A stretch of DNA of 64,000 nucleotides from Scilla litardierei (lineage: Eukaryota > Streptophyta > Magnoliopsida > Asparagales > Asparagaceae): assembly GCA_030789695.1 (NCBI GenBank), contig CM061142.1:565741281-565805280 (forward strand). Direction: 5' to 3'. The notes under the pieces were generated by a model. It was given only the letters and a program-made list of their open reading frames with translations. It did not search any database and was not told where the DNA came from. The first letter of the stretch is position 1. Each line of letters begins with the position of its first letter. Positions 1 to 46,960 of the stretch are shown here, one piece after another. The position numbers and the translations under genes are program-made.

Positions 1-1395
1 TTGGTTTGGGTCAGGTCTTAGACTACATCTAGGCAGACTACATCCTTGACTAAACTTGCGCCGCCTCTCGGTGTATCCACGACAACGTCGGTTTGGGTCA
101 AGTCAAGATGTCATCTTATGTATTTAAGAAGTTGGTTTCTACAAGGTTGCCATGTCACAGCTTGAGTGTATCTCAACAACTGTAACATGGGCCCTATAGT
201 TGCTAACCCCTAAAACAAGGAGGGCTACGGCTAATCTTAAAAAAGATCATTAACGTATTTGACTTAGATATAGTCCAGGGTGTCATACAATCATGATTCG
301 CGACATTGCGTTCCAGCGGAACTCAGCCAGGGAATTGACTAAGCCAGGATCACTACCCCTTGGACTAGCAAGGGTTGACCCAGAACTCTTAACCAAGCAC
401 ATTGACTGGATCATGGTCCATTGAATGAAGCTTGTCATTTTTGTATGTATGCCATAGACTAAACGGCTTTTATTAACAACTAATTAATCCTATCAACTAG
501 TTGAAACCTTAAATTCAAAATTTTAGGATTTGTTTAATAACCTTTATTAAGTCCTTATCAACTATAAGGTTCACGTGCTACCCTAATCGCTATTAGGATT
601 TTAATAAATTTTATTAACAACGCTAGAAGCGAAGTCCTTTAATGAAAATTAATTATAATAATTAGAATTGAAAATTCATTTAAAGCACTACCCTAATCAG
701 GAATTAGATCTTAATATTGTTGTTAATGATTTATTAAAACATAGCATGTCATTAAAATTCAAGTAATAAATTTTAATCATTTTTAATGGCTAACCTAAAA
801 GGTTGTCTTGTGTTATCAAATAAGGGACAAGATTAACAAGCCATTAAAATAAAGCTACACTAATTTTATCAACATAAAATGAAAGTGTATATCTATTTAA
901 CAATTAAATAAACTAATTTTATCGCATAAACAATTTTTAGACTTTTAAAATCAATTTTAAAAATATCTTATAAATTTAAAACATTACTTTAAAATTTTCA
1001 ATGTTCAAAAATTTATCATATACAATTTTTAAACATCTAAAATATTTTAAACTTATCGCATAAATTTAAAGCCTTAAAATCAATTTTAAAATTTATCACA
1101 TAAATTTAAAAACACCATTTTAAAATTTCCATGCTTAAAAAATTTATCATATAAAAAATTTTAGGCATCCAAAATAAATTTAAACTTTTAAATATTTAAA
1201 ATTAGTTTTAAAATTATCACATAAATTTTAAAACGTCATTTTAAAAATTTTCATGTTCAAAAAATTTATCACATAGAATTTTGAACTTCAAAAACATTTT
1301 TAAAATCATCTAATAACTTTAAAAATTTAAAAGTATTTAAAAAGCATTAATAAGTTTAATGAAATCGCAGTACCTAGATCGACTACGCAAACCTA

Positions 1396-1408
1396 GGCTC
1401 TGATACCA
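1396..1408 (-). other. Primer-binding site, initiator tRNA-Met type
   Basis: The minus strand reads TGGTATCAGAGCC one base after the LTR end. This is the standard plant copia primer-binding site, complementary to the 3' end of initiator tRNA-Met. It fixes the orientation of copy 1 and the inner LTR boundary. Confidence 0.9.
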
Positions 1409-2061: not shown

Positions 2062-4426
2062 CGGCAGACTCTCCCCTTTTCTCAAAATCCGATGTGGGAC
2101 TAAACAATGAGTTAATTTAAAATCAAGTTAGTTTGCACTTCACAAAGTGCAAACTTCCGTGAATTTTAACTCACTCACCGTTGAGCTTCAGGATTGATAA
2201 AACCTATCAATACGACAAGCGTTCAACGGTGAACGCATAGGAAAAAGTTGTTCGTCAATCGGAGTTCGTTTGACCCTCCAATTGAGTGTCCAAAGATCAG
2301 CCAACGGCTAGTTTTTCGCAAAAACCAGCCGTCAAATCTGCCATCAAACCTAGGGTTCAGCACCCTGAGGTGGGGCCGAACCTGTGGGTCCCACAGCCTC
2401 AAACCCAGGCTGACTGAGCGCCTGCCAGACCTGGGCATGGGCGCCCAGGTCTGGCACGGGCGCCCAGGCGCCCAGGCGCCCGGCGGGCGCCTGGGCCGGG
2501 CGCCCAAGGCGCCCGGCCCAGGGCGCCCGGCCCTGGGCGCCTGGGCTCCCAGGCTCCCAGGCCCGCCTGGGCGGCCCGCCTGGGTGCAGGCCCAGGCGCC
2601 CAGCGCCTCGGCCTGTGCCCAGGCCTGCCTGCCTGGGTTCCTGGCTCAGCCAGGTCTGGCCAGGCACCCAGGCCAGACTTGGTCTGGTCTGGGTCAGCCT
2701 GGTCTGACCCGGTTTGATCTGTTTGGCTGTTTTGTCTCTAACTTGAGCATCCGGTGTCCGATTTGGACGCCGTTCGAACCTGGGTCTAGACCGGGACATT
2801 CCCGTCTTACCCGTGAACTTTTCCTTGCGTTTATTTTATTAAATATTGTATTAAACAATTTAATACACATTTAATCGCTTTTGCATCAAATGCAAAATAG
2901 TCCCTATCTAAGCTTAAATTATCATATTGCATCAAATGCAATTATCTCTTCTTTTGCATCAAATGCAAATATTCTCCCTAACTATTTTCTACCTATTACT
3001 AGACGAAGAATCGCACTCTGTGTGAGACCCTACAGCCTGACCCTTACAACAGGTTGGGCTCGAAGCCCTATACGGCAGTGGCCACGAGCAGTGGTTACCG
3101 TCCCTGCTTCAGGAATCATCATTATGTGGTTGACTCATTGACATGAGTCTTGTCGAGACCACCCTGACTGTTTCCGTGATGATTTCCGCAGTTATAGTCT
3201 CTTCGTCTAAATTGTGTCATGTAGATCAAGTCTGGGGTACGGTCAAACTGTCAACCCCAATAACTTGACTCCAGTTAGTTTCTATGGATCTTTATTCAAC
3301 TAATGTTGGACTTCTTCCAACATACTCTGCGCAGAGTTTTTACTAAAGACCGAACTAACTCTACGACACTAACTCCCATTGACCGGGAGAGACGAATCCT
3401 CTCTTGGTCATTACTCGCCTCGTACGTTTCAAATGACACCCAATCAAAAAGACCTTTCGACAGGCATTGCCTCGAAGCTAGGTCAGTTGATATAAGTGGC
3501 ACCGTTCACGCACAGGTTTGTCAAAATGACCTCAAGTCAAAAGACCAACTATCCTATCATCACTCAGAGTCATCATTGACAGTTTGGTCAATATAACCAT
3601 ATGATAACTCTAGTGGATCGTTCAGTGAACTCATTCTAATGAGCACCTGTGTCTCGTCTTCGACTTCGCCAAGTCAAGCGATCATGAGATCATCGCTACC
3701 GCTAAACGGTGAAGACTAAGACACAATGGTCTATCCGATGTTTCGATATCCTTGTCTCGGAACATCTACGACCACGAACCATTTTAGACTTATGCTACAG
3801 ACAGTCAAACGTTTCTCCATGATCGAGATACTCATCTCGATACCCGTTTGACCTTAAGTTGATATCTAATGTTAACTACATTACAATATAACTTAGATAA
3901 ATTATTACCAAACAGCTTACTGTTATTTCGAACAAGATGTTTGTGCTATTCACACAGGAATAAATGGCCTTGAGGGCATCATATTCCTACAAAAATGAGA
4001 CCACTTGTTGTTAGATGCTCTAAAAATTATTTTATGTGATAAAATCCTTTTAGTAGCATTCTAATTTTATGTGATGATTTTAAAACAAATGTTTTTGAAA
4101 TAAAAATTATGTGATAATTTTTATGCAACTATTGACTTTTATTAGATAAATATTTTTTATGTTTTAAAATCATACATATAATTTAATTGTTAAATTTTAA
4201 GTTGCATATTATTATTTATAGGATAAATTTTAATATGGTGTTCATGTTTAATAATTATTTGATAATTGTTAAATAGTTATAAACTTTTATGCGATATTTA
4301 AGTTGATAAGTTGCATGCTGATTTTATGCGATAAAGTTAGTTTATGGTTTTAAATGGTTATTCTAAATTCTTACTTATTATATGATAATTCAAGAAAGCC
4401 TTTTAGGTTAGCCATTAAAAGCCATC

Positions 4427-4538
4427 TGTTGTAAACGTGGTGGCTATGGAATCCATAGCCCTGTATTTATAGTGGTAGGGTTACATAATGGGTGGATACC
4501 CACTAACGGCTAGGCCCACCAAAAACTCGTTTATAACA
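4427..4538 (-). repeat. 3' LTR of B1
   Basis: This 112-bp LTR reads TGTTGTAAAC...TTATAACA on the plus strand and matches 10817-10928 apart from five substitutions. It contains a palindrome (4442-4460, GGCTATGGA/TCCATAGCC) and a TATA box (TATTTATAG on the plus strand at 4464-4472, CTATAAATA in the element sense). The palindrome lies between the TATA box and the expected transcript start. Confidence 0.92.
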
Positions 4539-4551
4539 CTTCCCCTTATCC
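4539..4551 (-). other. Polypurine tract of B1
   Basis: In the element sense GGATAAGGGGAAG lies directly upstream of the 3' LTR. The same tract precedes the LTRs of B4 (GGATAAGGGGAAG before 17256) and B5 (63753-63765). It primes plus-strand DNA synthesis in LTR elements. Confidence 0.8.
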
Positions 4552-4616
4552 ATCCATTATTGTAAGCAGTGATGAACGCTTCAGGGTTCATATAGCTTAT
4601 TTGATCATGTGTCTAT

Positions 4617-4880
4617 GGATACTTCTGGATCCTTAAGTTTAAGAGTACTTGCCTCATTAAAACCTTTGCCAAGGAAAACCCAGTGGGAAAAACTAGTGGC
4701 TAAGGGAAAAGAGTACAAGTCTCTGTAACTTCCCCTGATCGATGGATAACATCAGAGGTGGATACTTCTGGATCCAGCGTTGATGTGGCTACCTCGTTAA
4801 AACCTTTGGCTATGGAAAACCCAGTGGGAAAAACCAGTAGCCAAGGAAAAAGAGTACAGCACAACATTAACTCCCCCTGA
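4617..4880 (-). repeat. Duplicated 3' untranslated segment of B1 (143-bp period)
   Basis: Two related segments begin GGATACTTCTGGATCC at 4617 and 4760. Both contain AAACCCAGTGGGAAAAAC and end with a purine-rich run in the element sense (ATCAGGGGAAGTTA and ATCAGGGGGAGTTA). The same pair occurs in B5 (63834 on) and in diverged form in B4 (about 16980-17230). The duplication is therefore an old feature of the family's 3' UTR. Confidence 0.8.
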
Positions 4881-4892
4881 TAAGTACAAGCT

Positions 4893-5462
4893 TCAGGCTT
4901 GTAAATATCTCAACTGTCTCATCCCAATTCCTAGTACATGTTTTCTAAAGGTGCTGCGAGGCAAAGCTTTAGTGAACAGGTCTGCCAGGTTGTCGCAAGA
5001 CTGGATCTGCTGGATGTCGATCTGGTTGTCCACTTGCTGTTCATGCGTCCAGAAGAGTTTGGGGGATATGTGCTTCGTCCTGTCACCTTTGATGTAGCCA
5101 CCCCGTAGTTGAGCGATGCAGGCAGCATTGTCTTCATACATGGTGGTAGGTCCAAGATCTACCGTCTTCAGGCCGGTGGTCTTGAGGATGTGGTTGATGA
5201 CTGATCGAAGCCAAAAGCATTCTCTGCTAGCTTCGTGGATCGCAATGAGCTCGGAGTGGTTGGATGAGGTTGCTGTCGATGTCTGCTTCACGGATCTCCA
5301 TGAGATGGCCGTCCCACCGTATGTGAACACAAAACCGGTCTGGGACTTTGCGATATGTGGGTCGGACCTGTATCCTGCATCTGCATAACCGACCAAGTCG
5401 GAGGATACACCTTCCTTGAAGTATAGTCCCATGTCCACAGACCCTTGGAAGTAGCGCAGAAG
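4893..5462 (-). pseudogene. pol: B1 RNase H
   Basis: In frame with RT after a TAA at 5460-5462, it reads LLRYFQGSVDMGLYFKEG and then the RNase H domain. Motifs are VGYADAGYRSDP (first Asp), TATSSNHSELIAIHEASREC (Glu), TTMYEDNAACIAQ (Asp) and a C-terminal HISPKLFWTHEQ plus DLFTKALPRSTFRKHV. The acidic residues are present. It would remove RNA from the RNA-DNA hybrid during reverse transcription. Translation is prevented by the upstream stops. Confidence 0.9.
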
Positions 5463-6937
5463 TTACTTAACTCCGTTCCAGTGGCGCTTTGAGGGCGCAG
5501 AACTGTATCTGGCTAGTAAGTTAACTGCGAACACTATATCGGGACGCGTGCAGTTTTCCAGGTATAGGAGTGCTCTGATTGCGCTTAAGTAGGGTACTTC
5601 AGGACCCAGTGTTTCCTCCCCCTCTTCCAGCGGTCGGAAGGGGTCTGTGTCAACCTCCAATGATCGAACGACCATTGGTGTGCTAAGCGGATGACATTTG
5701 TCCATAAGAAAGTTTTTCAACACTTTCTTTGTGTATGTCGATTGGTGTAACAGGATTCCTCCGCTTAAGTGTTCAATTTGTAGGCCTAGGCAGAACTTCG
5801 TTTTGCCGAGGTCCTTCATCTCAAAAGTCTGTGTGAGACTTTTGGATATCTCACATATCTCTTCAGGAGATCCGATGATGTTCAGGTCGTCTACGTAGAC
5901 GGAAATAATCACGAATCATGTTCCCTTTACTCTTATAAAGATGCAAGGGCAGACTTCATTTGTTGTGAATCCTTGTTGCACTAGGAATTCACTGAGTCTG
6001 TTGTACCACATTCTACCTGACTGTTTTAGACCATACATCGATCTCTGAAGTTTGACAGATTAGACGTCCCGAGGTCTTTCTGTCATTTTTGTCGGTAGTT
6101 TGTATCCATCTGGGATTTTCATATAGATGTCCTTATCTATATTTCCATAAAGGTATGCAGTCACAACGTCCATGAGCTGCATATCCAAATCTTCCTTTGT
6201 GGATAGGCCTATAATGAAACGGAAAGTGATCGCGTCCATGACCGAGGAATAGGTATCGTCATAGTCTATTCCTGGTCGTTGGAAAAATCCTTGTGCAACA
6301 AGGCGCGCTGTGTAATGCACGATCTCATTTTTCTCGTTTCTTTTTCTCACGAATACCCATTTATATCCCACAGGTTTAACACCCTTTGGTGTTAGGACTA
6401 CAGGTCCAAAAACGTTGCGCTTCGAGAGTGAGTCTAACTCTACTCCTATTACTTCGTTCCACTTCGGCCAATCCTCTCTGCGTTTACATTCTGCTAGAGA
6501 GCGTGGATCGGTTTCATCGTCGTATTCAGTGACGTGAGTGGAAATAATGAGCGCGAAGTTATCATCGATGATTGTGCTTTTTCTGTCCAGTACCTCCCCA
6601 GTACGTACATAATTTAATGATATTTCTCCTATATTTTCCTCTTCAGGGGTTGTTAGGAGGGGAGAGATAGCTGGGCTGAGCTCAGCATCCTGTGGTGGTA
6701 TCGTTATTGTTGCTTCAGGATTTTTCCTCTTTCGAGGGTTCTTATCTTTGGAGCCTGGGGGTCGTCCTCTTTTTTGTTGAGGTATGGCCGCTTCTGCTGC
6801 AGGTGGATTGCATCCATCTTTGGGTATGTCAATCCTAGCTGGCGTATTTGCAGCAGGGACGTGTGATCTGACAATCTTCTGGTTGTCAGTGAATTTGTCC
6901 GGTAAAATGTGAACTGTGTTTTGGATTTGAAGGATCT
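5463..6937 (-). pseudogene. pol: B1 integrase tail and reverse transcriptase
   Basis: One frame runs from the integrase tail through RT. RT begins around SLAECKRREDWPKWNEVIGV and includes YKWVFVRKRNEKNEIVHYTA, QRPGIDYDDTYSSVMDAITF, LQRSMYGLKQSGRMWY and the catalytic YVDD in IISVYVDDLNIIGS. The frame is broken only by a TAA at 6060-6062 and a TGA just upstream of the YVDD segment (about 5913-5918). All key RT motifs are readable. The near-intact state agrees with a moderately young insertion. Confidence 0.88.
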
Positions 6938-7950
6938 TCAGGATCTCTTCTTCACATTGATTTTACGCGGATCAAAATGGGATAGAGTCTTTGTGTCCCA
7001 TGTAATGGTCTTTGAAGCTTCTGGCTTCTGTGTGTTAATGCCTAGTTTCGAAAAAGTGATTTCATCAAACTCACAATCTGCTAGACGTGCTTTAAAGGCG
7101 TCCCCTGTAAGGGGTTCGAGGTATCTAATGATCGATGGTGAGTCGACACTAATATAGATACCAAGACGCCGTTGAGGACCCATCTTGGTTCTCTGCGGTG
7201 GTGCTATGGGGACATAGACAGCACATGCGAATATCCTCAAGTGAGAGATATCGGGCGGGTTCCCATATGCAAGTTGCATCGGATAATAAGATTGACTACC
7301 TGACGGTCGCAATCTTATCAGCGATGCAGCGTGCAGTATGGCATTTCCCCATGCACTAACCGGCAACTGGCATTGCATCAACAATGGTCGAGCGATCCAT
7401 TGTAGTCTCTTTATAAGAGATTCGGCTAACCCGTTCTGGGTGTGAACATGAGCTACAGGATGTTCAACTTCTATGCCGGTTGCTTGGCAGTAGTCTAGGA
7501 AGACTTGTGATGTGAATTCCCCAGTATTGTCCAGACGCAATTTCTTGATCTGGTTGTCTGGGAAATGTGCCCGCAACTTTATAATTTGTTCAAGTAGCTT
7601 TGCAAAGGCTACGTTGCGGGTGGACAGGAGGCACACATACGACCATTTTGAAGATGCGTCGATCAGTACCATGTAGTACCGAAATGGTCCACTTGCGGGG
7701 TGAATAGGCCCGCAAATGTCACCATGTATTCTCTCTAGGAAACTTTGAGACTCAGAGTCCACCTTCAGGGTAGATGGTCTCGTGATCAATTTCCCTTTGT
7801 AACAAGGAGGACAAGGATTTGCACCCTTCCAAAGTAGCGTCAGGCTTTTCGGGTCAATTCCACGAGATTGTGATATGATGCGACGCATCATATTCCTCCC
7901 AGGGTGTCCTAGTCTATCGTGCCAGAGTTTGAATTCTGGTTGATTATGGC
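6938..7950 (-). pseudogene. pol: B1 integrase
   Basis: This is a largely open integrase segment. An HHCC-type remnant ends CPPCYKGKLITRPS. The catalytic core has the first Asp in RIHGDICGP, the second in KKLRLDNTGEF and the Glu in QNGLAES, so the DDE triad is complete. The C-terminal part contains WGNAILHAASLIRLRP. The frame stops at 6938, but the adjacent frame continues through the integrase tail to RT, pointing to a single small indel near 6955. That tail holds an AT-hook-like KRGRPPGSKDKNPRKRK near 6720-6775. The enzyme would insert the cDNA into chromosomes. Confidence 0.88.
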
Positions 7951-8361
7951 ACTTCTGGTGCCTAGTGTGTTTGTTTCCATTGCTCTGATCCTTGTGTGAT
8001 AGAGACCCGACGGGAGTCCCTCAAAACGCTCGATGGTGTTTTTAGCACCGTTTTTATGAGACGTTACATCAAGGTATTCTCTGTTTTGTTTGCTCACCAT
8101 TTCAAGGTGGTATCCGTTTAAGCGGATATGTTTAAAGCTTAACAGGTTTCTATGCGAGCTAGGGGAGAGAAGTGCATCTTGTATAAGTTGTTTTGTTTTG
8201 TTGGGGAGCATAAATTGTGCTTCCCCTGATCCTTCAATGATACCTGATGGACCGGAAATTGTATTTACGGTGCCATCTTATTTATTGATGCTTTGAAAAA
8301 AGCAGATGTCTTGGAGGATCGTGTGCGAAGAGACACTGTCCACTAGGCATTTAAAGTCCAT
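7909..8361 (-). pseudogene. pol: B1 protease and start of GAG-pre-integrase
   Basis: The frame begins near MDFKCLVDSVSSHTIL (8361), where VDS is the aspartic-protease active-site region; the family usually has D-S/T-G or D-S-A. A TAA at 8278-8280 interrupts it. The rest continues as GSGEAQFMLPNK and LLSPSSHRNLLSFKHI, typical of the sequence between protease and integrase. Just before 7909 the frame shifts: the conserved LWHDRLGHPG of the GAG-pre-integrase domain is readable only in the next frame. Protease would cleave the Gag-Pol polyprotein. Confidence 0.8.
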
Positions 8362-8529
8362 CTATTTTAAAAGAAAATATCACAGTATAAGGCACACACA
8401 GAAAATATACTACTGATAATCAATTTGATGTCTGAAAAGTACTTCAACATGCTAGAGAAGAAAAAAAACAAGCAGATAAATAGTTTCTCAAAAAGGGAAG
8501 CTACAATGCATAGAAAATGGATAATGTCC

Positions 8530-9489
8530 TCAGTCGAGCAGGTCATCGTTTGAGAAGTCCTCAGCGATGAACCTGATTGGTGCCAGGTCTTCTTGAACCA
8601 CCAGGTTTGTCTCAGCTTGCTTCTGGCTCGCTTTGTACAAGTCCTGCAGGTGTCGTGGAGTCCGACAATTCCTGGACCAGTGTCCAGTCATGCCACACCT
8701 GTGGTACTTATCTTCCCAGTCCTTTCTGGGGGCAGATGTCTGGCCGTCGTCCTTTCTTTTCCACACATTATTCTTCTTCCTCCCCTCATTGTTGCTTCTG
8801 GGAGGGGGTCCTCTAGCCTGCTTCTTCATTGCTTTGCCCTTCTGGGGTTTGCCTTTGAAGTTTCTCCTCTTCTTCTGGGAGGAGCTGTGATGCGCTTCAG
8901 GCGCAGGAGCAGTGCCGGTAGGGCGTGAGTTATGGGTGGCCAGAAGAAGGTCACGATTCTGCTCTGCCATCAGAAGGCATGAGAGAAGCTCTGAGTATTT
9001 CGTGAACTTGCGTTCACGATACTGTTGCATTAGTATAACATCCTTCTCGTGGACGGATGTATACGTCTTCTCTAACATGCGCTCCTCCGTCACCTTTTCA
9101 CCACACAACTTCAGGCGTGAGGTGATGCTAAAGAGTGCCGAGTTGTACTCGGCAATAGACTTAAAGTCTTGGAGACGGAGGTTTTCCCATTCATATCGCG
9201 CTCGAGGAAGTATAACATCTCTTTGATGTTTATACCTATCCTCGAGGGCGGTCCATAACTCATACGAGTCTTCCACCGTGAGGTACTCGGCCTTCAGGGT
9301 CCGATCGATATGGCATCTGATATAGATAATTGCTTTCGCTTTATCTATATCAGAAACCCTATCGCCTACAGCGATGGCGTGGCTCAATCCCTATGCTCGC
9401 AGATGGAATTTTATGTCCAACTGCCAGCTTAAGTAGTTCTTGCCTGAAGCATCCAAAACGTCGAAATCGACGATCGCAATTTTGGCCAT
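8530..9489 (-). pseudogene. gag: B1 gag (UBN2-type capsid, zinc knuckle), one nonsense codon
   Basis: The frame opens with MAKIAIVDFDVLDASGKNYL at 9489 and ends at a TGA at 8530. An in-frame TAG at 9391-9393 breaks it after about 32 codons. The middle has the copia gag (UBN2/retrotran_gag_2) signature, with YLTVEDSYELWTALEDRY and FKSIAEYNSALFSITSRLKL. A basic linker and a nucleic-acid-binding zinc knuckle follow. The knuckle reads YHRCGMTGHWSRNC, with its first cysteine replaced by tyrosine; the related B2 copy keeps CHNCGMKGHWSRVC. The protein would form virus-like particles that package element RNA. With the stop and the damaged knuckle it is probably not functional. Confidence 0.9.
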
Positions 9490-9950
9490 TTATCACTCTA
9501 GCATGTAAAAAGATAGGCATTGATTAGATATTTTTGCAGAAAAATAAATAATTAAGCACATCAGACACAGATATTTGCTGCGTGGATCGGCTAATCACCA
9601 TATTAATTACAGTCCATTACAGTCCCAAAAAGAAATGAAAGTACAACTCGGGAACCCCCGTGGGGCCCCTATTCTTCTGGAATAGTCCTTCATCTTCTTG
9701 AGGCGTCCGCCAGTCTTGTAATATTACAAAATTATCCTCACTACAAATTTCTCTCAAAAGAAAAAAAATGCGGGAAAATAAAATGGTGATCCCTTAGCCG
9801 ATCCAAAACCACAGTAAATATTGACATTCATCGCAGGCAGATAAAATGCAGCAGGCATTTAATCATCACAGGCAGTTTATTCATTATAGGCAATTTTAAT
9901 CATCACATGCAGTTTATAATGGAAAATGAAATCTTTCGTTTAAATATTTT

Positions 9951-10020
9951 TGGACCACTAGGCAACGTCATACACCGTTAGGTTAGTTGACTAACGGCAG
10001 AGCGGTCGCATGATCTTCTT
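9951..10020 (-). other. Conserved 70-nt leader block of the short-LTR family (B1)
   Basis: This block between gag and the GC-rich leader is nearly identical to 45679-45748 in B2 (67 of 70 positions by my count), while the neighbouring leader DNA has diverged. It contains arms CCGTTAG and CTAACGG around a nine-base loop. Its place in the leader suggests an RNA packaging or dimerisation signal, which is inference. Confidence 0.65.
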
Positions 10021-10179
10021 AATTTTTAAACGTTTAGAAAAATCATATAATCCGAATAAAAAGTCGATGGATAAAATCGCATGTAATTTTGTCCAGCTTT
10101 TGACGAAAAAATCGCAATTAAATCTGAAAAGTTTTGAAAATCGAAAAATTTTCGGGGGTAAACCCTAATTAGGGTTTTT

Positions 10180-10500
10180 GGTCGCGCGGATTGCCGCTTC
10201 AGGCGGCAAGGGTTTCCGGACATTGGCGCGCACCGGGGGGCTGATACGAGCGGATGCTGGGGGGCCGCCGCTGCGGGCGGCGGGGCCCGCCGCTGCTGGC
10301 GGCGGGGGGGGAATGGGGGCCCGCTGCTGCTGGCGGCGGGGCCGCCCGCCGCTGCAGGCAGCGGGGACTCCCGCCGCTGCCGGCAGCGGCGGGTCGGCGG
10401 CGGGCCACCCGCCGCCAGCAGCGGCGGGGGGGGGGGGGGGGGGGGGTTGCCGCCGCTTCGGGCAGCGGGCGGGGTTTTGGGGGGAATCGCGTTCCGGCGA
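10180..10500. repeat. GC-rich imperfect hairpin repeats in the B1 leader
   Basis: Repeats of GCCGCCGCTGC-type units and their complements (GGCGGC...GCCGCC) form many possible hairpins, with a G run at about 10424-10446. Long frames on both strands here are artefacts of the composition. B2 and B3 have analogous but differently built GC-rich arrays in the same leader position. Confidence 0.75.
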
Positions 10501-10710
10501 GAAGATCCCCTAGGGTTTGATAGTTTTTGGGGATAAAAAAACCAATTTTTACTTAAAAAAAAGTGTTTTTTAATCTCCAAAAGTCGTTTTTTATTGTAAA
10601 AGGTTGATTTTTAGCAATAAAAACGATAGAATCTTGAGCGATTGATCCAAGAAATTGGATCTCTACATATGCGCATATGAAATTTTAGATCTAGGGTTTC
10701 AGGATTACCT

Positions 10711-10734
10711 CTAGATCCTACCCGCCGGATCTAG
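10711..10734 (-). other. Covarying leader hairpin near the primer site (B1)
   Basis: Arms CTAGATCC (10711-10718) and GGATCTAG (10727-10734) are perfect complements. In B2 the same place has CTATATCC/GGATATAG (46802-46824), where one G-C pair has become T-A with pairing kept. The flanking CCT and CGACG are conserved. It lies about 80-100 bases inside the primer site, in the transcribed leader. Confidence 0.6.
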
Positions 10735-10802
10735 CGACGTTCGGTGAAGGAAGCCCGTTGGCGTCGTGTTCGTCCGTCGGCAGGGGTTCGGCTCAGCTTC
10801 GA

Positions 10803-10814
10803 GCGTGCTGATAA
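10803..10814 (-). other. Primer-binding site of B1
   Basis: The minus strand reads TTATCAGCACGC two bases inside the 5' LTR. The same TTATCAGCACG follows the LTRs of B2 (before 46961) and B3 (before 49105). I cannot assign the tRNA with certainty; short-LTR copia elements are known to use internal (half-tRNA) primers. Confidence 0.65.
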
Positions 10815-10816
10815 CG

Positions 10817-10928
10817 TGTTGTAAACATGGTGGCTATGGAATCCATAGCCCTGTATTTATAGTGGTAGGGTTACATAATGGGTGGATACCCACTAACGGG
10901 TAGGCCCACTAAAAGCCCGTTTATAACA
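10817..10928 (-). repeat. 5' LTR of B1
   Basis: This 112-bp copy of the same LTR is followed, leftwards, by the primer-binding site. The palindrome is at 10832-10850 and the TATA box at 10854-10862 (minus strand). Being the 5' LTR, it would drive the element transcript leftwards. Confidence 0.92.
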
Positions 10929-11408
10929 CCATCTAATTATTATGAGATAATTTTAGATTGCTTTGCTATGATTTAAAATTGTTTTAAATGCCTAATACAC
11001 GATTAGGATAACACCTTAAAAATCATTCCTTATAGTTGATAATGACTTAATAAAAGTTATTAACAAATCCTAATAATTTCGAATTTTAGGATTCAACTAG
11101 TTAATAGGATTAACTAGTTATAATGAAGCCATTAATAATCGTATGAGACACATATGAATAATAAGTTTCCTTCAATGAACCATGATCCGGTCAATGTGCT
11201 TGGTTAAGTTTGTTGGATCACCTTAGCTAGACTGGGAACAAGTGATTCTGGCTTAGTCAATTCCTTGGCCGTGTTCCGCTGGACTGCAAAAATGCGAATT
11301 ATGATTATGATGACATCATCGATTATATCTAAGTCAATTACGTTAAAAATCTTTTTCAAGATTAGCCGTAGCCCTCCTTGTTTTAGAGGTTGGCAACTAT
11401 AGGTTCTT

Positions 11409-12316
11409 TGTTATAGTTGTTCAGCACACTCAAGCTATGACATAGACCCTTTATGGAAACCAACTTCTTAATACATGAGATGTAGTCTAGTCTTGACCCA
11501 AACCGTCGTGTCGTGAGTACACTGAGCATCGAAGTAAGTTAAGCTAGACACGAAAATAAGGGTCCGACTAGACTAGTCATTGTGATTTGGATAAGTACAC
11601 TCATGATCATAAGTGGCTAGGGGTAAAAACCAATAAGAGAATCATATATGATATGATTGATGAATAGTCATCTACCTATCGCAGAGTCAAGCAATTTGTT
11701 GAGCACACTCAAGGCTGTGAGGCTCGAGGTGGTTGGATATCTTTTCCATTAATTTAATTTTGATTAAATCGTTCATTATTATGGCTTAAAATGACCGCTA
11801 AAATAGTGGGAAGATATATTTAGATAAAATACATTCTATCTATATTTAATATTGAACATATGCTAAACTAGGGTAGTTCTATGTTTACCAATGGAATCAA
11901 AAACATAATATTCTAAGAGAATAAGTTAACTGGTCCAAATAGTTGGTTAATCAAATATTAACTCAAATTCTAATTGATAGACTAAACAATGTTCTCATTG
12001 ACATTAAAATGACCTTCTTAAGCATAGGCTTAAGGACAATGATTTCCTTAAGCTCTAGGTCCAACAAAATAAATGCACGCTACCTGTCACTCGCCTAAAT
12101 GAGAGGTAGCTTGAACATACTGATGTTCAAAGCATGTTTCTCCATACGATTTGTTGAGCACACTCAAGATTGTATGGAAAACAGTTTCGATCTGCAAAGT
12201 TCGAAACTTCGATCAATTTGTTTGAATCGAAGATGAGTGCATGAACGGTGCAAGACTATGTATCCCAACCGGATCTTGAGACGAGCAACTTGTTGAACAC
12301 ACTCAAGGTTTCAAGC
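11409..12316 (+). other. Leader/gag hairpins with the TTGTTGAGCACACTCAAG core (copy 2)
   Basis: The 18-mer TTGTTGAGCACACTCAAG or a close variant occurs at about 11417, 11697, 12151 and 12290, with a diverged form near 11590. Each is embedded in its own inverted repeat. The clearest is 12142-12177: arms CCATACGAT and ATTGTATGG pair over nine positions (one G-T), then TTG opposite G, then TTGAG/CTCAA closed by CACA. The two right-hand copies lie past the apparent gag start, between gag and protease remains. Function is unknown; an RNA structure of the element transcript is one possibility. Confidence 0.6.
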
Positions 12317-14135: not shown

Positions 14136-16044
14136 TGTTGAGATATGGGTATGCCCTCGAGGAAAATTCATCTATGTGTATCTATACAGACATCTTGTTC
14201 GAAATAATAGTAAGCTGTTTGGTAAGTATTTTTCTAAGTTAATAGAAATGTTGTAATTATTAGGTAAAGTCCTGAGACTTAATGCAAGGTCAAACATGTA
14301 TCGAGATGAGGATCTCGATCATGGAGAAGTGCTTGACCGTTAGTAGCATAAGTCTAAAAAGGTTTGTGGTCGTATATGTTTCGAGAAAAAGATATCGAAA
14401 CATCGGATAGACCATTGTGCCTTAGTCTTCACCGTGTAGCGGTGACGATGATCGCATGATCATTTGACTTGGCGAAGTCGAAGACGAGACACATATGCTC
14501 ATTGAAGAATGAGTTCACTGAACAACCCAACAAGAGTTATCATATGTTTATGATTGACCAATCTGTCAATGATAACTCTTAATGATAATAGGCAAGTTGG
14601 TCTTTTGACTTGAGGTCATTGTACGAACCTGTGCGTGAACGGTGTTACTTAGATCACTGATCTAGCCTTAGGCAAGCCCCGTTGAAAGGTCTTTGGTTGG
14701 GTGACATTTGAAACATGCGAGGAGAGTAATGACCAAGATAGGATTCGTCTCTCCCAGTCAACGGGAGTTAGTGTCGTAGTGTTAGTTCGACCTTTAGTGA
14801 AAACGCTGGCCAAAGTATGTTGGAAGATTTCCAACATTATTTGACTAAAGATCGATGGAGACTAACCGGCTTCGAGCTATTGGGGTTGACAATTTAACCA
14901 TACACTAGGCTTGAATTAAATGGCATAGTTTTGACGAAGAGACTAAAACTACGGTATTCATCACGGGTACAGTCAAGGTGGTCCCAACAATACTCATGTC
15001 AATGAGTTAAACACATAAGTATGATACTGAAACATGGACGGTACCTGCTGCTCGCGGTTACTACCGTTTGGGGCTTCAAGCCACACCTGTAGTAGGGTCA
15101 GGCTGTAGGGTCTCACACAGAGTGCGACCTTCGTCAAGTAATAGTTAGCAATTAGAGAGAATATGCATTTGATGCAAGTGATAGAAATTGCAAAGAGTTT
15201 GCAGTTAGGTCCTGCATTCGGGATAAATGATCCTGAGTGCACGTGTGATAAGTTGGAGGATGCATGCCCTTATATCATTTGTATTTGATGCAAAATATTT
15301 TTCATAATAGATGTGGACATTTTTGCATATGATGCAAATGGAGTTAAATATGTCGTAAATTGTTTACACGCATATTTAATATAACAAATGCGTAGAAAGG
15401 GATACCTGGATGTCGGGGTCGTCCCAGTCTGGACCCAGGTTCGAACGGCATCCAAAACGAACGCCAAACGCAGAAAATATAGCCATTTTACCATAGGCCC
15501 CAAGCTATTGGGCCACTTGGAATGGCTTGACTCTGGCCCATTGGGCCGAGTCAATCTGCGAAATAGGTGCCCGCATTTGCGGGCGCCTGAGTTTTTGCGC
15601 ACGCCTTGGGCGAATGCTTTTCATGTGCCAACTTGTGCGTGCGGGCCACATGCTCAGCTGGGCACTGGGCGCATGCCCCGCACGAGCCGAACCTGGCGCG
15701 TGGGCGGGTGGGGCCCTTGGTGGGCCCCACCCAACAGAGTTGGCATAGGTTTTTGTGCGGGTTTCGTGACAACTGAGCTTTTTTAGCGAAAAACTGGTTT
15801 TGACCTATGTTTGGACACTCGTTTGAGGGGTCAAACGAACTCCAAATTACCCGTCGTTTTTTTCCACACGTTCACCGTTTAGCGCTCTTCGATTTGATAG
15901 GTTGTATCAAATACGAAGCTCAATGGCGAGGTAGTTAAAATTCATTGAAGCTTGGCCTTTCTTTAAGGCAAACTAACTTGAATTTTTACTCCAAGTTTTT
16001 TAGTCCCACATCGGAAGTGGAGTAAAGGGGATGGGTCAGCCGCC

Positions 16045-16054
16045 TATATAAATA
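16045..16054 (+). promoter_or_regulatory. TATA box in the copy 2 LTR
   Basis: TATATAAATA sits in a conserved context (GCCGCC before, GGG after), shared with copy 1 on the opposite strand. It is the likely core promoter of the LTR. In a 3' LTR it could drive read-through into the DNA on the right. Confidence 0.65.
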
Positions 16055-16303
16055 GGGACATACCCCCCTCATCATAACTCGTCCAGAGCTCTAGATCTGA
16101 GCAGCTCCCAAAAAGTTTGGAGACCGCTCGGATCTAAGCTTAAAATAAATATTCTCTTCTCACTATATTTCTCTATTGCTCCTGAAGGGCTCTAGCAAAG
16201 CCACGAAGGGGCTCGGATCGGATCCGAAGTCTTGACAGAGGATCCACTCAAGGTGAAACTTTCTTCGGTGCGTGGTTGGCTTAGTGACAATGGGGTTGCT
16301 CGC

Positions 16304-16426
16304 CTCGGGACACGGTACGGTTCGGGAAGCGGTTCAGCTCGGAACGAGGAAGGGCTCGGGATGCGGTTCGGTTCGGGAAGCGATTCAGCTCGGAACGAGG
16401 AACAGCTCGGGACGTGGTTCGGTACA
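16304..16426 (+). repeat. 51-bp tandem repeat in the LTR
   Basis: Two full units (16304-16354 and 16355-16405) and a partial third begin CTCGGGA and contain GGTTCGGGAAGCG and CAGCTCGGAACGAGGAA. The unit length is a multiple of three, which keeps spurious frames open here. It replaces the 12-bp repeat seen at the same LTR position in copy 1. Confidence 0.8.
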
Positions 16427-16687
16427 CTTTGTCGGTGCAAGAAAAGTTCCAGGTATGTAGTTTAATTAAGCATTTAATTTATTATATTGAAGTAGCTTAG
16501 ATCTATCTTGGGGTGGTCAGATCCACCTTAAGATAGTAGAGATCCTGGCTAGGGTCTTGAAATCCTTATGGCTTGCTCGTTAAATAGTTTAACGTTTTTC
16601 GCTGCTTTCTTTTTTGTTTGCGTCTATCGTTCGTTCAATGTAGGATGTGCATAGAATAATGCCCTAATGGTCCCTCAAAACCCATCA

Positions 16688-17394
16688 TAAAGTACCTCGC
16701 AGACATAGTGACGACTGAGTCAGAGACTAGAGACATGTAGCTATATACCCAGTCTACAGACCATGCCACTTTTCTAGCTCATCCTTGAGAAGGCTACATT
16801 AAAGGCGAAGAGACAGAGCACATCTGTTCAGAGGAGCTTTCTTGGATTCAGTAACTGTCATATATGAGCGACACTTGTATGATGAGCGATACTGGTATTT
16901 TGTATTTTCTCTCGGAATGTTGTAGATGAGATTGATGTATAGATGCCTAGGAGATCTGCAAGTGTGAAGCTTATACAGATCAAGGGGGAGTTAAATGTTG
17001 TGTTGTACTCTTTTCCCTTTGATATGGTTTTTCCTACTGGGTTTCCGTGGCCAAAGGTTTTAACGAGGCAACCTAATTAACTCTAAATCCAAAAGTATCC
17101 ATCCCTAGTGATATCCACACAGCAGGGAAAGTTAAAGAGACTTGTACTATCTAACTTAGGATTCAGAAGTATTCACCCCTTGTGATACTAATAAGCACTA
17201 TGAATCCTGAAGTATTCATTTGTCGAGTTTACAAAGATGGATGGATAAGGGGAAGTGTTATGAATAGGCTTCCTGAGACCTTTCGTATATCCACCACTTC
17301 ATATTCCTCAAGTATATTAATATATACGTGATGCTAGGAAACCCCTAACCATCACTCTTTCTTGGAGACTCTTCATCTCTCAACACATCCAACA
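16688..17394 (+). mobile_element. 3' end of short-LTR copia element B4
   Basis: This plus-strand remnant starts abruptly at the end of the copy 2 LTR. It has decayed RNase H coding (EGYIKGEETEHI, near 16795-16830), a 3' UTR with the family's GGGGGAGTTAAATG and TTTCCTACTGGGTTT blocks, the polypurine tract GGATAAGGGGAAG and a 3' LTR at 17256-17394 (TGTTATGAAT to CATCCAACA). The LTR end is placed by the CAACA terminus only. The 5' part would lie beyond copy 2, left of the window. Confidence 0.75.
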
Positions 17395-22554: not shown

Positions 22555-24368
22555 TGTTGAGAGATGGATGCCCTCTAGGCAATTTATCTATATAAAACAT
22601 CTTGTTTATAAATGAAATTATGCATTCTGATATATATTGTCTAACTGTTTCTTTTATGATGTCTTCTTTAAAATACTTGGATAATTTCATTAGACTTATA
22701 GCAAGGTCATACACGTATCTAGATAGAGATCTCAATTATGGGAAGTGTTTGACCGATAAGAACTTGAGTCTTAAACCGTTCATGGTCGTAGATATGTTGA
22801 GAAAAGGATATCGACACATCGGACAGACCATTGTGTCTTTGTCTTAACCAAAAGGGTGATGATGATCTTATAATCATTCGATCTGGCGAAGTCAGAAACG
22901 AGACACAGATGCTCATTAGAGAATTAGTCCACAGAACGATCCAATAAAGAGTTATCAAATGGTTAACATTAACTAAACTGTCATTGATAAATCTCTAGCG
23001 ATGATATGAAATTTGGACCTCAAGATTTGAGGTTATTGTACAAACCTGTGCGTGAACAGTGTCATTTTGATCTATGATCTAGCTTCGAGGTAAGGCCTAC
23101 TGAAAGGTCTTCGGTTAGGTGAAACTTGAAGCATACGAGGTGCGTAGTTATTAAGAAAGGATTTGTCTCTTCCATCAAAGGGAAGTTAGTGTCACAGGCT
23201 CAATACAGTTCTTGGTGAAAAACCTCGGTTGGTATGTTGTAGGAAGTACAACATAGACATACCAAAGACCGAAGGATATTGACGAGTGCAAGATGTTAGG
23301 GTTGACAATTTACCATACCCTAGAATATGCAGTGACATAGTTATAACGAATGGACTAAAACTACGGTATTCATCACATGCACAGTTAGAGTGATCCCGAA
23401 GACATTTAAGTCAATGAGTCAATCATGTAATTATGATACCGAAACTGGGACGACACCAGTTGCTCATGGTCACTGACGTCTAAGGGTTTCGAGTATCAAC
23501 CTGTAGTAGGTTCAGGCTTTATGGTCTCACACCAAGTAGGATTTGCGTCTTAATGATAAGAAGGATATACGAGGAGTGCAGTCGGGTGCACAAGAATAAT
23601 TATTGTCACAAAGGATTTGTGGCAATAAGTCTAAAATAATTTAATGGAGTGTTTTACATGATGTCACAAAATGTTTGTGGACATACGATACATAGAAATG
23701 AAGAGATGATTTTTCTACAAAAGTCAGGAAAAATCGGCTCAAAAGGAGCTAAAAATCTTAAATTAAGGCCGAGAAGGCCAGAACCGAGCTTTGGCCCAGT
23801 TCTGGGCTAGCCCAGCTGCATTGGGTGGGCTGGGCCAGCCCGCCCAGCCCAGGCGGGCGTGTCGATCACGCCCGAGCGACGGGTCAGGGCCCGCTAGGCA
23901 GGCGCCCGACCTGCCCATGCGGGTGGGCGCACCCAGGTGCGTGGGCGCGCCTGCTGGGCATGCCTAACCCGTGGGTGGGCCCCGTGGGTGGGACCTAAGG
24001 TTTGTGAAACCTTAGGTTCTTACGACGACTGCGTTTTTCCCCGGAAAATGAGATTTTTGGTCAACTTTAAACGTTCGTTAGAGGTGTCAAATGAACTCAG
24101 AATTGATCACAATTTTTTTCATACGCGTTCACTGTTCAGTGCTCTTCGATTTGATATAAGATATCATTGTAGTAGTTTAGATCTGTCTTTGGGGGTGGTC
24201 AGACCCACCCCAAGATAGTAGATTTTCCTTGTTTGGGTTTATGTTAATCCTTAGGGATATCATTAAATTGTTTAATGATTTTATTCTGCTGCTTAATTCT
24301 GTTTTAGTTGTCCGTCTGACGTAGGACGAGTGTATTTTTATGCCATGAGGGTCTACCAGAACCCAACA
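22555..24368 (+). repeat. 5' LTR of Angela-like copy 3 (about 1.8 kb, deleted)
   Basis: It starts TGTTGAGAGATGGATGCCC and ends ACCCAACA. Compared with copy 2 it lacks about 0.58 kb, including the TATA box region: sequence jumps from the GATTTGATA block (about 24148) to AGTAGTTTAGATCTGTC (24171 on). This LTR probably lost its promoter. A GC-rich segment remains at about 23815-23960. Confidence 0.85.
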
Positions 24369-24369
24369 T

Positions 24370-24382
24370 TGGTATCAAAGTC
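24370..24382 (+). other. Degenerate primer-binding site of copy 3
   Basis: TTGGTATCAAAGTC follows the LTR end ACCCAACA. It is the tRNA-Met-type site TGGTATCAGAGCC with two or three changes. It fixes the LTR boundary. Confidence 0.8.
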
Positions 24383-25334
24383 AAATCTACTATGATCTAT
24401 TTTTTGCAAATGATGTGAAATGCATAGGATGTTTATTAGAAACATGTAGCTAATTTGGTTATTTAATTTTTAATAACTATGTGATGATTATTAAAAATTG
24501 TAGTAACTTAATCTTTATGAGATAATTTTAAGTTGCTTGTTATCATGCGAAAATTTTATGAGATAAAACTTTTAGTTGAATCTTTTAATGGTTATTTCTT
24601 TTCTTACTCATTATGTGATAATACAAGAAAAACATTTATGTTAGCCATTAAAAGCTTTCTAAAACTTATAACATAGTTTTTAGATGGATGTGCTAGGATT
24701 TAAAACTGTTGCAATCTTTAATTTCCTAATACTCGATTAAGGTAGCCCTCTTTAATAATTATTATTTTGTAACTTAATTGTTGTAATAATTATTTTGAAA
24801 ACGCTATGATTTAAATTGTTGCAACTTGAATATTTAAATACCTAATACATGACTATGATAGCACCCTGAAAATTAATTCCTTATAGTTGATAAGGACCTT
24901 AACAAAAGTTAGTAATCATTCCTAATAATTTTGAATTTTATGATTCAACTAGTTGATAAGATTAAATAGTTTAATGAAGACATATTAAATCGATGTTACA
25001 CATTTAAATAATTTTCATCATTAAAGGAGCATGAGAGCCAGTAGAACTTGGAAACACAGAAAGGAGAAGGGGGTAAGCGACCAAATTAAAGGACTCTCCT
25101 GCTAACAGGTGTCTAGAAAGTTAGTAACTAGTGTTGTGGATCACCTCAGCTTGATTGACTATGGATAAGTGATCCTAGCCTATCCAAACCCACCTGTCCA
25201 TGTTCTGCTAGACTACAAGTATACAATTTATTTTTGTGACACCATCAATTACATCCAGTCAAATACGTATAAAAATCTTCTTCAAAAATTAATTTAGACC
25301 TCCTTATTTTGGAGTTTGGCACCTATAGGTTCTG

Positions 25335-25649
25335 TGTTGTAGTTGTTGAGCACACTCAAGCTATGACATGACTACCTTATAGAAACCACCTCCTAATTAC
25401 ATATGACGTAGTCTAGACTTAACCCACCCGTCATGTCGTGCCTACACCGAGCGTCGGTGTAAGTTAAGCTAGACACGAAAACAAGCGTCTGACAAAACTA
25501 GTCATTATGATTTGGATGAGCACACTCATGATCATAAGTGGTTAGGGGTTAAATTTTATAGTGAGTAATTGATGGTGTGATTGATGAAGAGTCGTCTACC
25601 GACTGCAGAGTCAAACAACTTTTTGAGCACACTCAAGGTTGTGAGACTC
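25335..25649 (+). other. Three leader hairpins with CACA loops (copy 3)
   Basis: Hairpin 1 (25335-25368): TGTTGTAG pairs with CTATGACA (eight pairs, two G-T). Hairpin 2 (25505-25537): TTATGAT pairs with ATCATAA. Hairpin 3 (25608-25649): GAGTC/GACTC and ACAAC/GTTGT. Each continues through an asymmetric internal loop (TTG, TTGG or TTT opposite G) into a five-pair upper stem (TTGAG/CTCAA or ATGAG/CTCAT) closed by CACA. Lower stems differ completely between hairpins while pairing is retained. Role unknown. Confidence 0.65.
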
Positions 25650-25817
25650 GGGATGGTTGGATCCCTCTCTCATTAAATTTAATTAATGAATTCGTTCATT
25701 ATTATGGCTTAATATGATCATTAAAATAGTGGAAAGATATAATTGGATAAAAACCAATCTAATTGTATTTAAATATTATAAACGCATGGTAATTTTAGGA
25801 GTTCTATTCTTTGTAGC

Positions 25818-26579
25818 ATGACGAGTGTAATTAAATATATCCTAGACAAGAATATGTTGACGGGTAATAAAAATGATGACTGGCTAAGGAATATAAAAGT
25901 AGTACGAGAGCAAAAGAAGAAGGGGCATGCTGATGCCTCAACTTCCATAATGGTTATACAAAGTATAGTTCTTTTTGTGACTTCTAATGCATGTGTATTA
26001 GATACCGGTGCAGGCTCTCACATCTGTAAAAAGTTACAGAGATTGAGAATTAATAAAAAGCTCGAAAAGAATGAGGTCATTCTCTAGTTTGGCAACGCAG
26101 CAAGTGTTGCTGATGTGGCAGTGGGAGATGTCCAACACACATTAGGGAGTGGTGCTGACTTTCTTTTGAAGCAATGTTACTATATCCCAAATTTCCTATG
26201 TAATGTTATCTCCATCTCAGCTTTGGCTAGAGAGGGCTATATTTTTACTATCAACGAAATGGTTATGAATATTTTCTTCGATAGTAAATTGCTAGGATTT
26301 GGAACCCTAAATAATGGTGTGTACATTTTGTGTAATGATGTTGTATTAAATGTTAATACACGAAAACGCAAGGAATCTGGTTATAATGAAAGTTATAATG
26401 AAACCTATCTTTGGCATTGTAGACTATGCCATATCAGAGAGATTAGACTTAGCAAGTTACATAAAGATGGGTCTTTAGGCTTCTCGAATTATGAGTCATA
26501 TGACACTTGCGAGTCTTGCCTCAAAGGTAAGATGGCCAAAACTCCCTTTGCAGGTCATGGGCAGTTAGTGAACTCTTAG
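25818..26579 (+). pseudogene. Copy 3 gag remnant, protease and GAG-pre-integrase
   Basis: One frame with a TAG at 26085-26087. It starts with the gag opening LTGNKNDDWLRNIKVV, then jumps straight into the protease entry (KKKGHADASTS), so most of gag is deleted. The aspartic protease active site is VLDTGAGSHIC. After the stop, AVGDVQHTLGSGADFLLKQC and CNVISISALA belong to the same domain. GAG-pre-integrase shows TYLWHCRLCHI and YDTCESCLKGKMAKTPF. The frame ends at a TAG at 26577-26579. Confidence 0.85.
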
Positions 26580-45748: not shown

Positions 45749-46149
45749 AATTATTAAGTTTTAATATTTGCACAACCAAACATAGTTTATCCACATAAAT
45801 AGCCTGAAAAGATGCGAAGCATATAGTTATGATCCTACAAAGGTATCATATAATGCAAGAGTTGTGCTAGTTGGGTTTATTCAAAAAAAAATTGAAAAAG
45901 AGCCCAAAATATAACATGTTCTTCTTGAAAAAGGAAGAAGTTTCCTTTTAAATCATCCCCAATTTATCCTCAAAAATCCCCTTATAGCCCCATAATTTAT
46001 CATGATTTTTATGAATTTTTAGGTCTTCCAAAACACCATTTTTAATCAATTTTTAGCCAAGCAGGCCTTTTTCAGGCTTATATCTTTGCCCCTTGTTTTT
46101 TTGTTAATCAATCCTACGGGCTTCAGGCCCGCAAGGCTTTTTTTTTTGA

Positions 46150-46670
46150 ATTTGGGCATCATGCCCAATAGATTAAGGGGTGGCGGCTAGGGTTAGCCAC
46201 CGCCGCCTTTGGATTGCCGCCGGGCAGCGGCAAGAGGGGGGGAAGCGCCCCAACCCGGGGGGGTCTAGCGGTAAGGCGGCCGCCCCCCTTCCGGGGCGGG
46301 CGGCGGCGATGGGCAACCACCCCCCTTCAGGGGGTGGGGTACCGGTGGCGGCAACTCGCCGCACCCCCCTTCAGGGGGGTTGATCTCAGCGGCGGCGAAA
46401 ACACCGCACCCCACTTTGGGGGGGTTTGCCGGCGGCGGCAAATCACCGGAACCCCCTTCGGGGGGTTGATCTCGGCGGCGACAAATCGCCACACCCCCTT
46501 CGGGGGGTGTGTGTATTTGATCTCGGCGGCGGCAAATCACCGCACCCTCCCTTCGGGGGGGTTTGATCTCGGCAGCGGTGAAAAGGACGCACCCCCCTTC
46601 GGGGGGGATTTGATATCGGCGACGGCGAAGCGCCTCACCCCCTTCGAGGGATTGTCGACGGCAATCGGGG
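46150..46670. repeat. GC-rich hairpin array in the B2 leader (unit 1)
   Basis: About eight or nine repeats combine CCCCCTTCGGGGG-type hairpins with GGCGGCGGCAAATCGCCGC-type inverted repeats and GTTTGATCTC spacers, roughly 40-50 bp apart. Open frames across it (up to 155 codons) are compositional. The array lies between the conserved block and the primer site. Confidence 0.8.
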
Positions 46671-46960
46671 TAAAAATATGATTTTTAGACGAACAAGTCC
46701 GTCGTTTTCAGGCGATTAGCAATTCCCATCTCGATCTTGTGAGATCAATGGGTAGATCAACATACGTATAATAAAAACAGTTTTTTAAGCAGGTTTTACC
46801 TCTATATCCGTCCTCAGGATATAGCGACGGTTGAACGAAGTCTACGCGGATGACGACGCTTGTTTGAGGAAGCCTTGTACCGCGCGTGTGGATCTCCCGT
46901 CTCTCTTCGCTTTCGCAACGATCGATTTTTGTGGAATTTTAGTGGCTCGTGCTGATAACG

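What the first reader, a model, noticed from the sequence alone, without database searches (positions are those of the whole stretch)
25335..25649. Recurring hairpin motif with variable stems and constant CACA-capped core in an Angela-like leader
Three sites share one architecture: a site-specific lower stem, an asymmetric internal loop (TTG/TTGG/TTT opposite G), a five-pair upper stem TTGAG/CTCAA (or ATGAG/CTCAT) and a CACA loop. Lower stems are unrelated in sequence (TGTTGTAG/CTATGACA; TTATGAT/ATCATAA; GAGTC..ACAAC/GTTGT..GACTC) yet all pair. Constant core plus freely changing but paired stems is what a selected RNA structure, or a mobile hairpin that copies its flank in inverted form, would leave. 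I know of no described element like this in plant copia leaders.
Basis: partly seen in the sequence, partly recalled or inferred. Interest (0 to 1): 0.8.

Follow-up and report, generated by a model that had tools for sequence, protein, structure and literature searches.

The report
Repeated RNA hairpin in retrotransposon leader
A plant jumping gene carries the same small RNA hairpin core several times near the start of its RNA, each on a different but still mostly pairing stem, which looks like a repeated docking site for a protein, perhaps the element's own shell protein.

Summary
Three decayed copies of one Ty1-copia family lie in the window (A, B; C on the minus strand). They hold nine hairpins at five sites, in the leader and, in A, past the probable gag start: A-N-UUG-UUGAG-CACA-CUCAA-G-N-U on a lower stem that differs by site yet mostly pairs. 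Own-flank pairing ranks first of 24 permutations of four sites with unlike stems and of 120 with the fifth. In seven rows 22 cells changed on both sides still pair, against 8.9 in shuffles and at most 7 when slid. A model built without site 2 finds B2 at E=3.9e-5 and nothing outside the nine below E=0.9. Hairpins are better conserved between A and B (98 of 109) than the rest of the leader (578 of 764; p=5e-4). 'Selected RNA structure' is supported; 'mobile hairpin' is not. I infer a repeated protein-recognition hairpin, most likely a Gag-binding packaging signal; no binding could be tested. Site 5 is weak and resembles site 3; gag around sites 4 and 5 is unconfirmed. No plant relative's DNA could be examined: the genome search did not complete (15 tries).

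The parts
25335..25368 (+). Hairpin B1 (leader site 1): lower stem TGTTGTAG/CTATGACA, 5' internal loop TTG, upper stem TTGAG/CTCAA, loop CACA
   Evidence: 8 of 8 lower pairs (two are G-U); CM 49.4 bits, but the row was used to build the model
25505..25537 (+). Hairpin B2 (leader site 2): lower stem TTATGAT/ATCATAA, internal loop TTGG, upper stem ATGAG/CTCAT, loop CACA
   Evidence: E=3.9e-5 with a model built without site 2
25608..25649 (+). Hairpin B3 (leader site 3): GAGTC..ACAAC/GTTGT..GACTC around two purine mismatches, internal loop TTT
11409..11442 (+). Hairpin A1 (site 1 in element A; one upper-stem mismatch)
11580..11612 (+). Hairpin A2 (site 2 in A; upper stem and loop changed, lower stem pairs)
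   Evidence: E=0.14 only
11684..11725 (+). Hairpin A3 (site 3 in A; one A-C break in the lower stem besides the purine mismatches)
12142..12177 (+). Hairpin A4 (site 4, past the probable gag start of A): CCATACGAT/ATTGTATGG, 9 pairs, intact core
   Evidence: gag inferred, not confirmed
12282..12315 (+). Hairpin A5 (site 5, past the probable gag start of A; weak lower stem, flanks like site 3)
150..190 (-). Hairpin C1 (site 1 in element C; 11-pair lower stem; one pair T-A in A and B is C-G here)
1397..1408 (-). Primer binding site TGGTATCAGAGC (motif recalled) of element C; the leader follows on the minus strand to base 1
   Evidence: the only exact match in the window
24370..24381 (+). Primer-binding-site-like sequence of element B (2 mismatches)
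   Evidence: one of two 2-mismatch matches in the window, so it rests on position
24382..25817 (+). Leader of element B, about 1.4 kb, hairpins in its last 0.5 kb
   Evidence: gag start at 25818 inferred from the reading frame
10974..11890 (+). Leader of element A (3' part), aligned with B and C; end inferred
26088..26579 (+). Piece of element B pol with the gag_pre-integrs domain
   Evidence: PF13976 E=6.2e-12

Best explanation
The element's genomic RNA carries four or five copies of one protein-recognition hairpin, from the last part of the leader to just past the probable gag start. The recognised part is the constant core: an A-U second pair in the lower stem, a 5' UUG internal loop opposite a single G, a five-pair UUGAG/CUCAA stem and a CACA loop. 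The rest of the lower stem only has to pair, so its sequence drifts. Shown: the core, its recurrence, pairing of unlike lower stems, compensatory differences between sites, better conservation between copies A and B. Inferred: that a protein binds it, that the binder is the element's own Gag, and that several sites together mark the full-length RNA for packaging into virus-like particles or start their assembly.
For: Own 5'/3' flanks pair best of 24 permutations (4 sites) and best of 120 (5 sites). (7 rows, site 2 left out): 88.6% of 105 cells paired against 69.9% shuffled; both-sided changes in 22 cells against 8.9 (0 of 500 shuffles), slid versions at most 7. (five site representatives): 34 of 39 lower-stem cells pair, position 2 A-U in 5 of 5, positions 1, 3, 4, 5, 7, 8 vary and mostly pair. 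Held-out B2 found by the model. Hairpins 98 of 109 identical between A and B against 578 of 764 outside. No match outside the nine below E=0.9 in the window. They lie downstream of the primer site, as does the Ty1 region held to be needed for packaging, +230-580 (PMC8396678, passages). The bulge-plus-loop design is like that of the MS2 signal, 'A in the 5' bulge' plus apical-loop motif (PMC6281560, passages).
Against: No protein-binding or packaging data. All three copies are decayed and from one window; no other species was examined. A5 is weak and resembles site 3. That A4 and A5 lie in gag rests on reading frames; Pfam, a protein search and a comparison with another copia gag in the window gave no support. 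G-U outnumbers A-C 9 to 3, as expected for sense RNA, but not significantly (p=0.15). The count of pairs with a both-sided change (8) is reached by 28 of 500 shuffles. Some other 40-nt stretches of the leader are as conserved (up to 0.90) as the hairpins. The hairpins start about 950 (B) and 1,200 nt (C) after the primer site, farther than in Ty1.
Confidence: 0.45

Rival explanations
1. The hairpins are bound by a host or element protein for another step of the RNA's life: translation control of the 1.4-kb leader, nuclear export or localisation, or sorting of translated from packaged RNA.
For: Same structural evidence. BARE, a plant copia element, keeps distinct RNA classes for translation and packaging (PMC3735527, passages), so a sorting device is plausible.
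Against: Nothing points to a particular factor; cores past the probable gag start would be read through by ribosomes.
Confidence: 0.3
2. The hairpins help two genomes dimerise or promote template switching, the self-complementary arms pairing between molecules.
For: Arms TTGAG/CTCAA are complementary to each other and shared by sites 1, 3, 4 and 5 apart from single decayed letters; palindromes were suggested to mediate Ty1 dimers (PMC4974528, passages).
Against: The CACA loop is not self-complementary, so no kissing loop; site-specific lower stems favour hairpins over duplexes between sites.
Confidence: 0.12
3. DNA-level palindromes bound by a dimeric transcription factor, like other palindromes in the LTRs.
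For: The LTRs of C and A carry three TTGCATTTGATGCAA-type palindromes each (three exact in C, three with one mismatch in A), so palindromes do multiply in this family; the G-U versus A-C test is not significant.
Against: A DNA-binding dimer needs no arbitrary paired lower stem and no constant asymmetric internal loop; by eye the LTR palindromes lack such stems (sequences).
Confidence: 0.06
4. A mobile hairpin inserts and copies its flank in inverted form.
For: Constant core with site-specific inverted flanks.
Against: Same sites in A and B (site 1 in C too) and no empty site among these copies; several lower stems hold G-U pairs or mismatches rather than exact inverted copies.
Confidence: 0.02
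5. Local duplication of a core plus chance pairing; no function.
For: A5 resembles site 3, so duplication may occur; recurrent exact hairpins of other kinds also exist in the window.
Against: Lower-stem pairing p about 1e-5, covariation, higher conservation.
Confidence: 0.05

Closest known systems
Dispersed packaging signals of ssRNA viruses, MS2 TR and similar (PMC6281560, passages seen)
   Same: Several stem-loops sharing a recognition motif in loop and 5' bulge
   Different: Here found only in the leader and just past it; binder unknown; a retrotransposon, not an icosahedral ssRNA virus
Retroviral Psi spanning 5' UTR and gag (MMTV PMC3473059, FIV PMC2987497; title and start of abstract in a search listing only)
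   Same: Position downstream of the primer site, reaching towards gag
   Different: A single repeated core is not mentioned in what I saw of them
Ty1 packaging region +230-580 and 5' pseudoknot (PMC8396678, PMC4974528; passages seen)
   Same: Ty1-copia superfamily (recalled), cis-acting RNA towards the 5' end
   Different: No repeated hairpin in the passages seen; a pseudoknot instead
BARE dimerisation and packaging signals (named in one passage of PMC3735527)
   Same: Plant copia element with cis signals for packaging
   Different: Their sequence and structure were not seen here, so not compared
Iron-responsive element (recalled)
   Same: Five-pair upper stem, bulge, constant loop, freer lower stem
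   Different: Different loop and bulge; host mRNA regulation

Membership tests
Dispersed packaging signals | Several stem-loops with a shared loop/bulge motif | tested here: met
Dispersed packaging signals | Spread along the genome RNA | tested here: not met
   only the leader and just past it, in decayed and partly deleted copies
Dispersed packaging signals | Bound by coat or Gag protein | not testable with these tools
   no binding data
Retroviral-type Psi | Lies downstream of the primer binding site, before gag | tested here: met
   exact primer site in C, 2 mismatches in B, hairpins downstream; gag starts inferred
Retroviral-type Psi | Extends into gag | tested here: inconclusive
   A4 and A5 lie past the probable gag start; gag not confirmed
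Retroviral-type Psi | Needed for packaging | not testable with these tools
   experiment needed
Kissing-loop dimerisation site | Self-complementary apical loop | tested here: not met
   loop CACA (7 sites), TACA (A2) or ATACA (C1)
Described Rfam family | Match at gathering score | tested here: not met
   0 matches in the window
Ty1-copia element | Retrotransposon pol domains and primer site | tested here: met
   PF13976 and PF25597 in B; that these mark the copia type is recalled
Angela lineage | Reverse-transcriptase phylogeny within Angela | not tested

The most novel reading that the evidence does not exclude
A plant LTR retrotransposon uses an array of one repeated Gag-recognition hairpin, running from the leader into gag, as its packaging code: a retrotransposon version of the dispersed packaging signals of ssRNA viruses, in which coding sequence evolved in place to form the same hairpin.
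Probability: 0.3. Interest if true: 0.75.

Novelty: new variant of a known kind. Interest (0 to 1): 0.55.

Why it matters
[quoted passage not shown] A compact, repeated, sequence-defined hairpin would make RNA selection by plant retrotransposons directly testable, and would give a motif for finding such signals, and parasites that share them, in other plant genomes.

Tried and rejected
Exact-core scans: viral contigs 15-mer gave 44 stretches; 1 of 44 extends to the 18-mer and its flanks do not look paired by eye, taken as chance; the flanks of the other 43 were not read. A second 18-mer scan gave 6 stretches, one of them the same locus; the other 5 were not read. Two-core spaced patterns: 0. 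Genome contigs 18-mer: 8 contigs titled as prokaryotes, against about 15 by a uniform-base estimate; flanks not read. Pol relatives in viral contigs: none confirmed by tblastn. Protein relatives: 26 of 52 candidates at E<=1e-3, mostly short, no DNA context. Gag test for the A4/A5 stretch: Pfam 0 families for three pieces; for two longer X-marked pieces one weak unrelated match (Ndc10_N, E 0.07-0.08) and none for a piece of B; protein search none of 4 candidates; pairwise comparison with another copia gag of the window only short low-scoring stretches. The gag claim stays inferred; my notebook entry ('INSIDE gag reading frame') overstates it. Kissing loop rejected on loop sequence. Mobile hairpin rejected on shared sites. 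Generic control: exact hairpins (5-pair arms, loops 3-8) occurring three times or more were absent from 30 of 30 Markov sequences, but the window holds other such families too (LTR palindromes, a tandem array), so recurrence alone is no proof. Dropped rows: site 2 (A2, B2) was left out of the covariation count and the model because its longer internal loop misaligns. Not used: structure prediction, fold search, solved-structure search.

Full report
What was checked. The finding names three hairpins in 25335-25649. All are present as described. A self-comparison of the window shows three decayed copies of one Ty1-copia family: C on the minus strand with an LTR, an exact primer binding site TGGTATCAGAGC at 1408-1397 and a leader that runs off the window; A with leader from 10974, pol to about 13494 and an LTR at about 14186-16700; B with an LTR at about 22690-24368, a primer-site-like sequence at 24370-24381 (2 mismatches) and pol to about 27621. 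Domains PF13976 and PF25597 are found in B. Boundaries are approximate apart from the primer sites.

The hairpins. Nine lie at five sites: site 1 in A, B and C; site 2 in A and B; site 3 in A and B; sites 4 and 5 in A only, in a stretch that B lacks and that lies off the window in C. Sites 1-3 are in the leader. Sites 4 and 5 lie 250-390 nt past an ATG (11891) whose frame shares a few residues (LTG, N, W) with that of B at 25818 (my reading), so probably in gag; Pfam, a protein search and a pairwise comparison do not confirm gag there. The constant part is A-N-UUG-UUGAG-CACA-CUCAA-G-N-U; departures are UUGG with AUGAG/CUCAU at site 2, UUU at B3, a broken second pair in A3, and single changed letters in A1, A2, A5 and C1.

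Is it more than chance? GAGCACACTC with up to one mismatch occurs 8 times, expected 2.0, 0 of 100 shuffles reach 8; one of the 8, at 1975, is not of this set. With 12 letters and two mismatches the excess is weaker (9 against 4.2; 4 of 100 shuffles). Lower stems in a fixed register have 8, 7, 5, 8, 5, 8, 7, 6, 8 of 8 pairs for A1, A2, A3, A4, A5, B1, B2, B3, C1; combined p over five sites 1.3e-5, over four without A5 7e-6. The energy of own flank pairs ranks first of 120 permutations of five sites (-63.2 against -58.8 for the next with B1-B3, A4, A5; -66.9 against -63.8 with A1-A5) and first of 24 without site 5 (-53.7 against -39.9; -57.4 against -48.0). Shuffled flanks reach the observed energy in at most 2.6% for 7 of 9 hairpins, but in 10% for A3 and 12% for A5. 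Of random window positions 0.5 to 9% do as well, a weaker contrast.

Covariation and conservation. On seven rows (site 2 left out) 88.6% of 105 cells are standard pairs against 69.9% in shuffles; 22 cells are changed on both sides against 8.9; covariation score 0.440 against 0.144, 0 of 500 shuffles reach it; slid versions give at most 7 cells and 0.146. Eight pairs have a both-sided change, which 28 of 500 shuffles reach. Most of this compares different sites of one family; between homologous copies there is one clear double change (T-A in A and B, C-G in C at site 1) and several one-sided changes that keep a pair. For five site representatives 34 of 39 lower-stem cells pair and pair 2 is A-U in 5 of 5; over all nine hairpins it is A-U in 8, A3 being the exception. 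A covariance model from the seven rows finds the held-out B2 at 3.9e-5 and A2 only at 0.14; the next match is at 0.9. Hairpin letters are 98 of 109 identical between A and B against 578 of 764 elsewhere in the aligned leader, p=5e-4, though some other 40-nt stretches also reach 0.90. In 300-701 nt folds the upper stems of B1, B2, B3, A4 and C1 form, A3 is near 50% and A1, A2, A5 do not form; I read this as decay of A.

Limits. A5 and site 3 share flank letters (A3-A5 12 of 18 upstream and 8 downstream, B3-A5 11 of 18 on each side), so site 5 may be a duplicate of site 3. Sites 3 and 4 also share 5 of 8 lower-stem letters on the 5' side, so 'unrelated' is strongest for sites 1 and 2 against the rest. 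The G-U excess that would mark sense RNA is 9 to 3, p=0.15. All copies are decayed and from one window. No plant relative's DNA could be examined: the genome search did not complete, and scans of viral and prokaryote collections gave few matches, taken as chance.

What it does. The design, a constant 5' internal loop plus apical loop on a freely changing stem, repeated in one RNA, is that of a protein-recognition hairpin. In MS2 the motif is an A in the 5' bulge plus the apical loop, and other stem-loops sharing aspects of it can also act (PMC6281560, passages). Ty1 packaging sequences are put at +230-580 (PMC8396678, passages), and BARE RNA is packaged with signals that the paper names but, in what I saw, does not show (PMC3735527, passages). 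I therefore commit to Gag recognition for packaging as the most likely role (0.45), with translation or export control next (0.3). The step from structure to Gag is inference.

Novelty. Rfam has no match at gathering score. Nine paper searches (one more failed) listed nothing that, by title or start of abstract, describes a repeated hairpin in a plant copia leader; one search returned no paper at all. The library holds open papers only, and I opened four papers, passages only. I class it as a new variant of a known kind: cis-acting RNA hairpins of retroelement leaders.

Noticed in passing
2881-2968 (minus strand) and 15163-15337: LTR of C holds three exact copies of the palindrome TTGCATTTGATGCAA, and the LTR of A three copies with one mismatch each, by eye without site-specific lower stems; possibly enhancer repeats.
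   Followed up: partly
23604-23683: LTR of B holds two other palindromes with a shared core, TGTCACAAAGGATTTGTGGCA and TGTCACAAAATGTTTGTGGACA.
   Followed up: no
25443-25461: Leader of B has an 8-pair hairpin TACACCGA-GCG-TCGGTGTA between sites 1 and 2, by eye broken in A and altered in C; not the same core.
   Followed up: partly
46318-46650 and 48433-48794: GC-rich tandem arrays with period about 40-49 whose units hold CCCCCTTCGGGGG-type and GGCGGCGGCA-type inverted repeats, inside a duplicated 1.8-kb stretch (45973-47750 and 48094-49897, 87% identical).
   Followed up: no
4231-4422 and 10974 onward: Another copia element on the minus strand (about 4427-10929) seems nested in element A, whose earlier leader part may lie at 4231-4422 (matches B 24451-24655).
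   Followed up: partly
protein P0015: A protein labelled Paenibacillus apiarius is 57% identical over 56% of this copia pol piece, on a 1.1-kb contig; possibly plant contamination of a bacterial assembly.
   Followed up: no
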